A stretch of DNA of 43,202 nt from Deltaproteobacteria bacterium. Its GTDB lineage: Bacteria > Myxococcota_A > UBA796 > UBA9615. Shown here piece after piece: positions 1 through 22,086 of this stretch. Each line of letters opens with the position of its first letter. The first letter of the stretch is position 1. The position numbers were made by a program, and so were the translations under genes. Location of the stretch: assembly GCA_002724675.1 (NCBI GenBank), contig PBPL01000077.1, positions 1-43,202 on the forward strand, in the 5' to 3' direction. The notes beneath the pieces were generated by a model that saw only the letters and a program-made list of their open reading frames with translations, did no database searches and was not told the DNA's origin.

Positions 1-543
<543 letters not shown>

Positions 544-18105: not shown

Positions 18106-18182
18106 CCGGGTGAATAGAAGTGAGGAGCAGTCCGCCTCGGCCGCGGGGCAGTGTGTCCGCACCCTTCAATGAAGGGGGGACT

Positions 18183-18211
18183 CGTATAGGCGAATTAGGT
18201 TCCCCTGACAG
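18183..18211 (-). promoter_or_regulatory. Candidate promoter of the TPR protein gene
   Basis: On the minus strand CTGTCA (18206-18211) and TATACG (18183-18188) are 17 bases apart, each 4/6 to consensus. A small CCCCT/AGGGG hairpin (18202-18217) overlaps the -35 box. The rest of the 18106-18486 gap holds the Pal promoter described separately and no gene. Confidence 0.3.
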
Positions 18212-18347
18212 AAGGGGCTCACACAACGCCCAGGGACAAGTCCCAGACAAAAAATTAGGGCGCGAGGCAATTGGGCCACCTCGAACCGCGCAGAAGCTAC
18301 TCTCTGTCCTTCACTCTAAGACTCTCGGGGTGCCTTTCGCAAGGGGT

Positions 18348-18377: not shown

Positions 18378-18486
18378 CCCGCTGGCACGGACCGTGTGTT
18401 TGGCACACCGTCGTCGTCGTCGCGCCACCAGGGGTGTGATCGACGGCGGTCCAAGAGATGGGTGCCCTGAGCAAGCGAGGAACTGG

Positions 18487-19233
18487 GTGTTGACCTACCT
18501 GAAGCCCCGATCACAGACCGTGGGAATGGTTGCCCTGATGGTAGCTGGGCTGCTGGTGTTGGGAGGGTGCCCCAAGCCCAAGCCTCCAGTCGAAGCAGGC
18601 CAGGAATCGGCCTCAAGCGGCCCTGAAATTCGCATTGATGTACTTCGCCCGGACAGCACTCTGGAAGGACGACCCGTCACGGTCCGAGTGGTGGGCATTG
18701 GCTTTCAGGAGGGGGCTGAGGTCTTTCTGGGGAGCCGCCGCGCCCGTGGGGTGGATGTACTGGATGGCGGAGAATTGAGCTTTCGGGCGACCGAAGATCT
18801 GCCCCCGGGTACTTATGACGTCCGAATTACGCGACCGGATGGTGCCGAGGCGCTTCGTCAGGCTGGTTTCACAGTAGAGGCTCTCCCGCGAGACGAAGGC
18901 AACTGTGACTTAGTGACCGTCCACTTCGACTTCAACGAGGCCAGCCTGACCAGCGGGGCCCGAGAGGAACTACAAAAGAACGCGGTGTGCCTCGAGGCTC
19001 GCGAGACGTTAGCCGTTCGTCTGGAGGGTCACGCTGATGAGCGAGGAAGCACGGAATACAACCTCTCACTGGCTCAGAGGCGAGCCGACTCGGTTCGCAA
19101 GTACCTGGTGAGCTTGGGTGTGGACGAGGAGCGACTGGCGACCCTGTCCTACGGCGAAGAGCGACCGGCTTCCACTGGCCACGACGAGAGTGCTTGGGCA
19201 GAGAACAGGCGCGTCGAGTTCAGCGCTCGCTGA
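18487..19233 (+). CDS. pal: Peptidoglycan-associated lipoprotein (Pal-like) with an IPT/TIG-like domain
   Basis: A 248-aa outer-membrane lipoprotein. The signal peptide ends at LGGC (Cys28). Residues 45-130 form an Ig-like IPT/TIG-type domain (RPDSTLEGRPVTVRVVGIGF, then PPGTYDVRITRPDG). The C-terminal 100 residues are an OmpA/Pal peptidoglycan-binding domain with VHFDFNEASL, LEGHADERGSTEYN and LAQRRADSVRKYL, which hold the conserved Asp and Arg that grip diaminopimelate. Standard Pal lacks the IPT/TIG insertion. The GTG start at 18487 has GAGGAA five bases upstream; the frame extends to 18394 without signal-peptide character. The next gene follows after two bases and is CpoB-like, as in Tol-Pal operons, although tolQRAB are not in this window. 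Confidence 0.9.
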   Translation: MLTYLKPRSQTVGMVALMVAGLLVLGGCPKPKPPVEAGQESASSGPEIRIDVLRPDSTLEGRPVTVRVVGIGFQEGAEVFLGSRRARGVDVLDGGELSFRATEDLPPGTYDVRITRPDGAEALRQAGFTVEALPRDEGNCDLVTVHFDFNEASLTSGAREELQKNAVCLEARETLAVRLEGHADERGSTEYNLSLAQRRADSVRKYLVSLGVDEERLATLSYGEERPASTGHDESAWAENRRVEFSAR

Positions 19234-19235
19234 CC

Positions 19236-20357
19236 ATGTATCAACCCGCGCGTTTGCTGCTGTTGTGCCTCGCCGTTGCCGTGTCGGCGCCGGGCTGTGT
19301 GACCGACCGTACTGGGCGTAGCGCCAGCTATTTGATGACGACCAAGCTAGAGACGACGCGGGCCCGAGCTCGCGCTCTTGAAGAGGACCTGTTGTTGGAG
19401 CGGCAGCGCATCGACGACATGCAGAACCGAGCGGTGGCCTCCCGCAAGCGCTTGGCAGAGTCTGGTGCAACACTCGAATCGTTCTTGGAAGAACTTCAAT
19501 CGGTCCGCGGTCAGCTGGCCTTATTGAGGCACGAACTGGACGGTGTCGGTCGCCGGGACGAGGACATGGACTTCCGGTTGACTGAGTTGGAAGTGATGTT
19601 GGCAGACCTAGCGGTGCGCATGGGCGTGGAGCCGGTCGCTGTGGCTCCGGTCGAGGTCGCACCTTCGGAAGACAAGCAGAGTTCAAATAGCCCGCCGTCG
19701 AGTCCCACGGAGGAACCGGTGGGGACGGAGCCTCAAGTGGATGTCTCTGCTGCTGTGGGGAACGAGTCTAGTCCCGCGGGCAGCTCGAGCTCCTCGCCAG
19801 CTGCGCCATCAGAGACTAGCGAGACGTCCCCGGAGGGTGCAGGGCGCGAGGCGGATGCTGATGCTGACACAGTAAAGCTTGGCTCTGCCGTGTCCGAGAT
19901 TGTCATGCAGACCGAGGGCGGCGACCCGAGCCCAGCCCCAGTGGCTTCTTCTGGCGGCCAGGCTTCGCCCGAGGCAGCCATGTTTCAGGCGGGTCTACTG
20001 CTGGTGAAGGCGGGCTCCTGGGAGAGGGCTGGAGGCCACCTGCAGCAGTTTCTCCGTAGCTACCCCAAGAGTCAGTGGGCATCGGAAGGCATGTACCTGG
20101 TGGGGGAGTGCCTCATGGAATTGGCGCGGTACAAGATGGCGATCACCGAATATCAGAAGGTGATCGAGCGGGATGACGGGTCCCCCTGGGCGCCTCGTGC
20201 CATGCTCCGACAGTCCCAGGCGTTTGATGCGTTGGGTACCGCACAGGACAAGGAAGCTTCCCGAATTTTCCTCGCTGAGTTGATTCGTCTCTACCCAGAG
20301 GCGAAGGAGGCTGAGGAGGCTCGAGAACGACTGGAGAACGACAATGCAGGGCAGTGA
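19236..20357 (+). CDS. CpoB/YbgF-like TPR lipoprotein
   Basis: A 373-aa exported protein. A signal peptide with a lipobox-like end (SAPGC, Cys21) precedes a charged coiled coil (about residues 35-125, rich in Arg, Glu and Leu heptads). A low-complexity Ser/Pro/Glu linker follows (about 130-240), then a C-terminal TPR region (MFQAGLLLVKAGSWERAG, YPKSQWASEGMYLVGECLMELARYKMAITEYQKVI). Coiled coil plus TPR after Pal is the layout of CpoB/YbgF, which coordinates peptidoglycan synthesis with outer-membrane constriction. The linker is much longer than in E. coli. The ATG at 19236 lies two bases after the Pal stop. The 3' end overlaps the next gene by 14 bases. Confidence 0.88.
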   Translation: MYQPARLLLLCLAVAVSAPGCVTDRTGRSASYLMTTKLETTRARARALEEDLLLERQRIDDMQNRAVASRKRLAESGATLESFLEELQSVRGQLALLRHELDGVGRRDEDMDFRLTELEVMLADLAVRMGVEPVAVAPVEVAPSEDKQSSNSPPSSPTEEPVGTEPQVDVSAAVGNESSPAGSSSSSPAAPSETSETSPEGAGREADADADTVKLGSAVSEIVMQTEGGDPSPAPVASSGGQASPEAAMFQAGLLLVKAGSWERAGGHLQQFLRSYPKSQWASEGMYLVGECLMELARYKMAITEYQKVIERDDGSPWAPRAMLRQSQAFDALGTAQDKEASRIFLAELIRLYPEAKEAEEARERLENDNAGQ

Positions 20358-22086
20358 AGCGAGTAAGAGACGATGCCTCATGCTGGGCTGGGGGACCTTT
20401 GTCCTTGCGGTTGGCCTGGTCCTAGGGGCTTGCTCCAGTGAAGAACCCGGCTCCGAGCGGTTGGCTGTTGCGGCCGGGCAGGAGAAGGACAACGAGGGCC
20501 AAGCTGCCGAGGGAGGGGATGTTGCTGAGGTGGCTGACCCTGGGGTTCGCGCCCGCTTGACTGTCGTCTACACAAACAACGTGGACGGAGAGATTGAGCC
20601 CTGCGGATGACCCAAGAACCCCCTCGGCGGTCTCGCCAGGCGCGCAACATACATTGATGAACTGAGGCTGAAGTCTGGAGCCCTCCTGCAGGTGGACTCG
20701 GGCGATATGCTCTGGGCCCGCGCTTCGGTCGAAGAGCCGGAGGAGGCTCAGCGCAAGCTAAAAGCGGAGCTGTTGTTGGATGGCTCGGCGCTGCTCGACA
20801 TGACGGCTCTTGGGGTGGGCGATGGCGAGTTGGCGTTCGGAGTCGACTTCTTGGTTCGGGAGGTTCAGCAGCGCAAGTTGCCCTACGTTTCCGCGAATCT
20901 CGCCAACGAGCAGGGGAAGCTTCTGTTCCCCGCCTTCCGAGTGGTCGAGTCGTCTGGGCTTCGCATTGGCATTACCTCGGTGTTGTCCGACAAGTTCAGC
21001 TTTCCTGACGCTCAGGTCTTGCCTGTCTCTCAGAGCCTGAGAGATGCGCTGGCGGTCCTAAAGGATAAAGAGAAGGTGGAGCTGGTCGTCCTCTTGTCCC
21101 ATCTGGGTCTTCCTGAGGACAAGGCGCTCGCCAAGCAATTTCCGAGCATTGACCTGATCTTCGGCGGCCATTCCCGGAGTCACCAGGAAGAGCCGCTCTT
21201 GGTTGGGACCACGGCCATCATGCAGGCGGGGTCCCGGGGCAAGCACTTGGGCGAGGTGACCATTGAGCTCCGGGAGGGAGCAGTAGGTTGGTTCGATCCC
21301 GAGGCCGGAGAACGATCCGCTCGGCAGCGCAAGCGCTTCGAGCTTCAGCTGAAGCGTTTCGAGCAACAGCTGGAGAACATGGCCCCCGATGACGCTCAGG
21401 GGCGTGCGCGACTTGAGCGGGTGCGAGGCTTCACCGAGAAGAAGCTCGCTGACCTGGCTGTTGTCCCCGAGCAAGTGGGGATTTCGAACCTCTTGAGGTC
21501 CCGGAAGGTGGCGATGGATCGGAAGATTGCCGACCACGCTCCCATGCAGGCTCTGGTGGATGCTGCGCTCGAAAAGATGGGGCCCGACGCCCACTCCTCA
21601 TCGGGTCACGACCATCATGGTCACGACCATCATGGTCACGCTCACCACGACCATGGTGTGCACGGAGCGGGCCGTCCCCACGCGGCCAAGAAGACCACCC
21701 GGGAGTACGGGGACTTCGTGGGGGCCAAGATCTGTATGGCGTGTCACCGAGCGATCTATGACGACTGGATGACCACGCGCCACGCCCACGCCTATGGGAC
21801 CCTGGTGGCGGACAAACGACACTTCGACCTGGACTGTTGGTCCTGCCACGTCACCGGTGCAGGGAAGCCTGGAGGACCGTCGGGGCCGTATGACGTGGGC
21901 ACGATGCGGAATGTTCAGTGTGAGGCATGCCATGGCCCCGGTCGGAAGCATATTGCGGACCCAACTGCCGTGGACATGGTTCGCAATCCGGGCGAGGCTC
22001 ATTGCAAGTCGTGCCATAGCGATGAGCAGACCGACAGTCGCTTCGTCTATGAAGAATACCTTCCGAAGGTGGACCACAAGCCCTGA
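20344..22086 (+). CDS. Candidate selenoprotein: metallophosphatase-like lipoprotein with tetrahaem cytochrome domain (UGA = Sec89)
   Basis: Read through the in-frame TGA at 20608-20610, this is a 580-aa exported lipoprotein (lipobox LGAC, Cys30). Residues 70-310 form a metallophosphatase (5'-nucleotidase-like) domain with VDSGD (118-121), SHLG (His253) and GGHSRSH (276-280); the usual first metal motif and GNHE motif are degenerate. At residues 87-89 the sequence reads Cys-Gly-UGA, then NPLGGLARRAT. As I recall the family, homologues have PCGC followed by GGLARRA, so the UGA replaces a Cys. A helical region, a His-rich linker (421-440) and four CxxCH haem sites (464, 498, 526, 554) follow. 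Frame, codon use and domain continue without a break after the TGA, which argues against a pseudogene. A SECIS-like hairpin lies directly downstream. GGAG precedes the ATG, which overlaps the CpoB-like gene by 14 bases. A sequencing error remains possible. Confidence 0.85.
20608..20610 (+). other. Recoded in-frame UGA (selenocysteine codon, Sec89)
   Basis: The TGA follows TGC GGA (Cys-Gly) and precedes CCC AAG AAC. Positions 20344, 20608 and 20692 are all in the same frame, so the codon lies inside one continuous coding sequence. Ordinary termination would yield an 88-residue product cut at the start of the phosphatase domain. Confidence 0.82.
20622..20640 (+). promoter_or_regulatory. Bacterial SECIS-like stem-loop
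   Basis: Counting from the base after UGA, C12, C13 and U14 pair with G30, G29 and A28; C15 bulges; G16-G19 (GGCG) pair with C24-C27 (CGCC); the loop is GUCU. The pentamer GGUCU occupies +19 to +23, exactly where E. coli fdhF has it. U14, G20 and U21 match the fdhF bases U17, G23 and U24 that SelB recognises. A one-base bulge on the 5' side near +14/+15 also resembles fdhF. It is part of the coding sequence. Confidence 0.78.
21604..21648 (+). repeat. 15-bp tandem repeat encoding a His-rich linker
   Basis: The unit GGTCACGACCATCAT occurs at 21604 and 21619, with a diverged third copy at 21634. It encodes the Gly-His-Asp-His-His type linker of the selenoprotein candidate, joining the phosphatase and cytochrome parts. 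Such His clusters can bind zinc, nickel or copper. The repeat could change copy number without shifting the frame. Confidence 0.85.

What the first reader, a model, noticed from the sequence alone, without database searches (positions are those of the whole stretch)
20344..22086. Candidate new selenoprotein: metallophosphatase-cytochrome lipoprotein with Cys-Gly-Sec
Seen: an in-frame TGA at 20608 interrupts a frame that is otherwise open from 20344 to 22086, with signal peptide and first strand before it and the rest of the phosphatase domain and four haem motifs after it. Known: selenoproteins typically have Cys homologues at the Sec position, and as I recall this phosphatase subfamily carries PCGC just before GGLARRA. 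Inference: UGA encodes Sec89, forming a Cys87-Gly-Sec89 redox or metal-binding site in an exported, haem-bearing lipoprotein. I know of no described selenoprotein in this family.
Basis: partly seen in the sequence, partly recalled or inferred. Interest (0 to 1): 0.93.

Follow-up and report, generated by a model that had tools for sequence, protein, structure and literature searches.

The report
Known-family selenoprotein: UshA-like, haem-bearing
The in-frame stop codon almost certainly encodes the rare amino acid selenocysteine in an exported, haem-carrying protein, but the protein belongs to a selenoprotein family that databases and reviews already list, so the find is sound but not new.

Summary
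In detail: one TGA (20608-20610) interrupts a frame otherwise open over 20344-22086, with the signal and first strand before it and the rest of an UshA-like domain plus four CxxCH motifs after it.

Selenocysteine is well supported. Of 75 loci from other genomes that cover the column, 56 have TGA and 19 Cys; all 24 close-relative loci readable there, own included, have TGA. The genome has selA, selB and a selD with its own TGA. selC was not found in this 90%-complete draft but occurs in 3 of 5 same-family genomes.

'New selenoprotein family' is wrong. The protein matches NCBIfam NF041198, 'UshA-like (seleno)protein', at 363 bits (cut-off 275), haem part included; papers of 2008, 2022 and 2026 list it with the motif CxU.

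One addition: most phosphoesterase metal ligands vary across 51 aligned members, while Cys-x-Cys/Sec and the haem motifs are invariant, which suggests a redox enzyme on a phosphatase fold.

The parts
20344..22086 (+). UshA-like (seleno)protein gene, NF041198, with one in-frame TGA
20608..20610 (+). TGA read as Sec89 (P-C-G-U)
   Evidence: homologues have TGA, TGC or TGT at this column
20622..20640 (+). putative bacterial SECIS hairpin: 7 base pairs with one bulge, apical loop GUCU, 19 nt between the TGA and the loop
   Evidence: (minimum-energy fold; z-score of the 61-nt stretch +1.18, so not remarkable on its own)
20344..20433 (+). N-terminal signal with lipobox-like LGAC (residues 27-30)
   Evidence: helix 7-30 in the model
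20548..21300 (+). UshA/5'-nucleotidase-type domain with degenerate metal ligands (residues about 69-319)
21733..22017 (+). four CxxCH haem motifs (residues 464-558); Pfam Cytochrome_C554 on residues 464-531
19194..20357 (+). upstream TPR protein, YbgF-like (79.3 bits against a cut-off of 90.1), overlapping the start of the selenoprotein gene by 14 bases
18394..19233 (+). OmpA-family protein, Pal-like (124.1 bits against a cut-off of 125.35)

Best explanation
This is a real selenoprotein gene of the known NF041198 'UshA-like (seleno)protein' family. UGA at codon 89 is decoded as selenocysteine by SelA, SelB, SelD and a tRNA-Sec, directed by a hairpin just downstream. The product is exported. 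I infer that its 5'-nucleotidase-like domain has lost phosphatase chemistry, and that the Cys87-Gly-Sec89 pair, 8 to 10 residues after the position of the first metal ligand, does selenol/thiol redox chemistry on an unknown extracytoplasmic substrate and exchanges electrons with the C-terminal tetrahaem domain. Shown here: family membership, Sec/Cys exchange in homologues, invariance of CxU and haem motifs in the aligned members, variation of most metal ligands, presence of selA, selB, selD. Inferred: actual Sec insertion, presence of selC, redox function, electron route. The confidence below is for 'real Sec gene of this known family'; I give about 0.6 to the redox function.
For: NF041198 match 363.3 bits (cut-off 275), residues 69-570 on model 21-519 of 519. 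Column 89: 56 TGA and 19 Cys of 75 covering loci, out of 80 fetched from genome contigs; none of the six search peptides contains that column. These two sets overlap: L025/L130, L026/L136 and L027/L133 give the same identities and look like the same genes. Sec and Cys labels need 4 changes on a 51-row tree, at least 2 forced by well-supported branches. selA 468.7, selB 306 and selD 364.6 bits, all over cut-off; the selD reads G-U-A-S-K. bSECIS-like hairpin of -5 kcal/mol or stronger in 57 of 57 TGA loci against 8 of 21 Cys loci; GGTCT in the loop region in 27 of 57 against 2 of 21. 51 of 51 aligned members keep C87, C/U89, G95 and the four CxxCH, while the His of DxH is kept in 5 of 51 and the His of GNH is not among the 8 commonest residues of its column.
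Against: selC was not found in the own draft genome by a covariance model (150 of 759 first-look candidates scored), two patterns, a DNA search with a kin selC, or ARAGORN on selA/selB/selD stretches. It was also not over cut-off in 4 other TGA-bearing kin (G003, G005, G006, G019), where 98 candidates per genome were scored. The window's own hairpin is no stronger than synonymous-codon shuffles (fraction 0.485), so much of it may follow from encoding GGLARR, and the 61-nt stretch folds worse than its shuffles on average. Against the redox reading: the window keeps 3 of 8 ligand positions (D121, H253, H276) and the family keeps the GD aspartate in 26 of 51, the SHLG histidine in 22 of 51 and the first GHxH histidine in 21 of 51, so metal binding is not excluded; the columns come from a low-identity alignment (mean 22%); and the 2008 paper names UshA-like as an exception among families with Cys-based redox motifs. 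No peptide or activity evidence exists here.
Confidence: 0.93

Rival explanations
1. Sequencing or assembly error: the codon is really TGC or TGT (Cys).
For: Single draft assembly; no reads were available to me. Cys is the alternative residue in homologues.
Against: The same TGA is found in 56 loci of other genomes and in all 24 close-relative loci readable at the column, own included.
Confidence: 0.02
2. Genuine stop: pseudogene or two separate genes.
For: An internal GTG at 20692 opens a 464-aa ORF; selC was not found in the draft.
Against: A decay mutation would not recur at one column in 56 other loci of several phyla; no second stop in the frame; the ORF from GTG lacks the N-terminal signal, which c-type haem attachment needs (recalled).
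Confidence: 0.02
3. UGA read as another amino acid (reassignment or suppression) rather than Sec.
For: selC was not found in this draft.
Against: The gene's own terminator is TGA; the alternative residue in 75 covering loci of other genomes is Cys only; selA, selB and a Sec-type selD are present; kin have tRNA-Sec.
Confidence: 0.03
4. Sec form as above, but C87 and Sec89 act as metal ligands of a still-hydrolytic (SoxB-like) enzyme rather than as a redox pair. This rival competes only with the functional part of the best explanation.
For: By sequence the motif follows closely on the usual first metal ligands; SoxB and 5'-nucleotidases are the fold relatives; some ligand positions persist.
Against: Most canonical ligands vary across the family, while the four haem motifs are kept in 51 of 51 aligned members.
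Confidence: 0.25

Closest known systems
NCBIfam NF041198 UshA_like_PCGU, 'UshA-like (seleno)protein'
   Same: Match over the cut-off on model positions 21-519 of 519, the PCGU motif of the model's name, UshA-like domain plus C-terminal haem part within the match
   Different: I saw no difference of substance
COG0737 UshA-like CxU selenoprotein of the GOS survey (PMC2398784) and of reviews PMC9312934 and PMC13188914
   Same: UshA-like, CxU motif; the 2008 table lists 76 Sec and 92 Cys forms (passages)
   Different: The passages I saw do not discuss the haem domain or the loss of metal ligands
NF049981 UshA-like (seleno)protein family 2
   Same: Related sequence, 60.1 bits
   Different: Under its cut-off of 140; listed with CxxU instead of CxU
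5'-nucleotidases (UshA, CD73) and SoxB
   Same: Fold of the N-terminal domain (Foldseek E 3.5e-20 for CD73, 2.0e-18 for UshA 1ush, 7.5e-18 for SoxB 2wdc)
   Different: Most metal ligands not conserved; CxU motif and haem motifs added
Cytochrome c554 (PF13435)
   Same: C-terminal domain, 52.2 bits
   Different: Fused behind an UshA-like domain

Membership tests
NF041198 UshA-like (seleno)protein | score over the curated cut-off (275 bits) | tested here: met
   363.3 bits, model positions 21-519 of 519
NF041198 UshA-like (seleno)protein | P-C-G-U/C motif | tested here: met
   PCG-TGA at residues 86-89; C87 and C/U89 in 51 of 51 aligned members, P86 in 44 and G88 in 48
Bacterial selenoprotein | in-frame UGA aligned with Cys in homologues | tested here: met
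   56 TGA, 19 Cys of 75 covering loci, 80 fetched
Bacterial selenoprotein | selA, selB, selD in the genome | tested here: met
Bacterial selenoprotein | selC (tRNA-Sec) in the genome | tested here: inconclusive
   not found in the 259-contig, 90.32%-complete draft; over cut-off in 23 of 30 genomes searched, among them 3 of the 5 same-family kin
Bacterial selenoprotein | SECIS hairpin 3' of the UGA | tested here: inconclusive
   a hairpin fits the model quoted (G at the start of a small loop, 16-37 nt from the UGA), and 57 of 57 TGA loci against 8 of 21 Cys loci have one of -5 kcal/mol or stronger, but the window's own is no better than synonymous shuffles
Bacterial selenoprotein | Sec shown in the protein | not testable with these tools
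   needs mass spectrometry or selenium-75 labelling
Active 5'-nucleotidase / SoxB-type metallophosphoesterase | DxH, GD, GNH, H and GHxH ligands (roles recalled, positions) | tested here: not met
   window has N79, D81, D121, D160, G161, H253, H276, R278 at these columns, 3 of 8 as in the active enzymes; the family columns vary

The most novel reading that the evidence does not exclude
The NF041198 family is a phosphatase fold converted into an extracytoplasmic oxidoreductase: the dinuclear metal site has decayed, a selenolate/thiol pair took its place, and a fused tetrahaem domain wires it to respiratory electron flow.
Probability: 0.5. Interest if true: 0.5.

Novelty: new member of a known kind. 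Interest (0 to 1): 0.22.

Why it matters
The unaided reading of raw sequence was right about the biology but wrong about novelty. The passages I saw assign the family no function; the conserved-site comparison makes one hypothesis testable, namely that a phosphatase fold was repurposed for selenium-based redox chemistry linked to haems.

Tried and rejected
Rejected: sequencing error, pseudogene and another reading of UGA, because the TGA recurs at one column in many genomes and alternates with Cys.

Led nowhere: selC in the own genome. The covariance search gave 12 hits of 42.1 bits and below (cut-off 47; 150 of 759 candidates scored); the 8 that became loci are ordinary tRNA genes by ARAGORN, 4 were not scanned. 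The TTCAA pattern gave one site, not a tRNA by ARAGORN. A kin selC as DNA query gave matches of 14-25 bases only. The anticodon-arm pattern gave 6 sites with three mismatches; two lie inside the tRNA-Ser(TGA) gene on C233, four were not scanned. ARAGORN on all of the selB and selD contigs and 20 kb of the 47.7-kb selA contig found no tRNA.

The hairpin control weakened the SECIS argument: TGA loci mean -10.58 against -7.35 kcal/mol for synonymous shuffles (49 of 57 below their shuffle mean, 11 of 57 at a fraction of 0.05 or less); Cys loci -4.72 against -3.79 (15 of 21, 1 of 21); the window's own locus is at 0.485. My scorer allows no bulge.

Neighbourhood: a tsaD homologue lies beside the gene in 15 of the 24 fetched relative loci L130-L153, whose flanks are only about 1.5 kb, and in L025-L027; Pal/YbgF-like genes lie upstream in nearer kin. 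These genes do not point to a substrate. Paper searches: selenoprotein + metallophosphatase + selenocysteine + bacteria, 0 papers; selenoprotein + UshA + cytochrome, 15 papers, judged by title and start of abstract except the two reviews read in passages; selenoprotein + Myxococcota, 4 papers, judged likewise. Structure coordinates could not be read, so no distances between Sec89, metal site and haems were measured.

Rows dropped or chosen: one search has 80 alignments; 5 are of the own genome (the window's locus L001, paralogue L002, L004 and L007 which are one place, and L006, an ordinary UshA-type protein with ATG at the column); the 75 counted are genome-contig loci, and 5 of the 80 fetched did not cover the column. 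Searches use 57 TGA and 21 Cys loci (L007 left out, L006 not in the tallies). In one search, 4 of 28 loci did not cover the column. Alignment A2 holds 51 sequences that I picked from the rows, which skipped minus-strand hits; L104 and L152, the two rows there with no CxxCH in their open frame, are not in A2, so 'invariant' is a statement about A2 only.

Full report
Observation. The frame 20344-22086 is open except for one TGA at 20608-20610. 491 sense codons follow it, where the base composition would give a stop in about 3% of codons (chance of none about 2e-7), and the two other forward frames carry 12 and 16 stops. Before it lie a hydrophobic signal with LGAC and the first strand; after it the rest of an UshA-like domain and four CxxCH motifs.

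Identity. The read-through protein matches NCBIfam NF041198, 'UshA-like (seleno)protein' (UshA_like_PCGU), with 363.3 bits against a cut-off of 275, over model positions 21-519 of 519. Pfam gives a cytochrome c554 domain. The structure prediction (mean pLDDT 84.2) matches 5'-nucleotidases such as CD73 and UshA, and SoxB. Fold and fusion are thus inside an already curated family.

What is in print. I read passages only. The 2008 Global Ocean Sampling survey lists 'COG0737, UshA-like', CxU, with 76 selenoproteins and 92 Cys homologues, and in its discussion names it, with SelD and FdhA, as an exception among major families that otherwise have Cys-based redox motifs (PMC2398784). The 2022 and 2026 reviews list it as CxU (PMC9312934, PMC13188914), the latter under NF041198. 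The 2007 Olavius paper and two papers by Haft and co-workers are not held.

Is it Sec? In 75 loci of other genomes that cover the column (of 80 fetched), the codon is TGA in 56 and TGC or TGT in 19. The six peptides used to fetch them do not include the column. The two sets overlap in at least three genes (L025/L130, L026/L136, L027/L133; same identities). One locus, L152, has PTGU in place of PCGU. On a 51-row tree the Sec and Cys labels need 4 changes, at least 2 forced by well-supported branches. The genome holds selA, selB and selD above cut-off, and its selD has its own TGA at what I recall as the catalytic position.

What does not fit. selC was not found in the own draft genome. The draft is 90.32% complete in 259 contigs. 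selC is over cut-off in 23 of 30 genomes including 3 of 5 same-family kin, and ARAGORN calls tRNA-Sec in the four loci tested. Of the 25 genomes with a TGA copy, 20 have selC over cut-off (searches compared); 98 first-look candidates per genome were scored. I read the absence as a gap in the draft or the search, which is inference. The SECIS-like hairpin fits the published model quoted and separates TGA from Cys loci (57 of 57 against 8 of 21 at -5 kcal/mol or stronger), yet in the window itself it is no better than synonymous shuffles, and the 61-nt stretch folds slightly worse than its shuffles.

How it may work. Aligning the family profile to 5'-nucleotidases shows where the metal ligands should be. 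In the window the DxH pair reads N79 and D81, the Asn and His of GNH read D160 and G161, and the last His of GHxH reads R278, while D121, H253 and H276 are kept; across 51 members these columns vary, with His at the DxH position in 5 of 51, Asp at the GD position in 26, His at the SHLG position in 22. By contrast C87, C/U89, G95, the four CxxCH and two further histidines (480, 536) are invariant in the 51. The alignment is of low identity (22% mean), so single columns may be misplaced, and two relatives without CxxCH in their open frame (L104, L152) were not in it. An active hydrolase would be expected to keep its metal site; this family keeps the selenol/thiol pair and the haems. I therefore infer a redox enzyme passing electrons between Cys-Gly-Sec and the tetrahaem domain. 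Substrate and direction are unknown.

Verdict. A real selenoprotein gene, correctly spotted, in a family already named as one. New member of a known kind; low interest overall, with a moderately interesting functional hypothesis.

Noticed in passing
L024 1319-2272, minus strand (own genome, C204): selD of the same genome carries an in-frame TGA in G-U-A-S-K, i.e. probably a Sec-containing SelD.
   Followed up: partly
L152 (unnamed kin G012): UshA-like relative with PTGU instead of PCGU and no CxxCH motif in its open frame: Sec kept, the partner Cys and apparently the haem part missing.
   Followed up: no
L004 199-1929 (own genome, C87): The same genome encodes a Cys paralogue (PCGC) with four CxxCH motifs.
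   Followed up: partly
window 18125-18299, minus strand: 6S RNA (Rfam RF00013, 58.2 bits) upstream of the Pal-like and YbgF-like genes.
   Followed up: no
window 1-543 and 638-754: 3' part of 23S rRNA and a 5S rRNA at the contig start.
   Followed up: no
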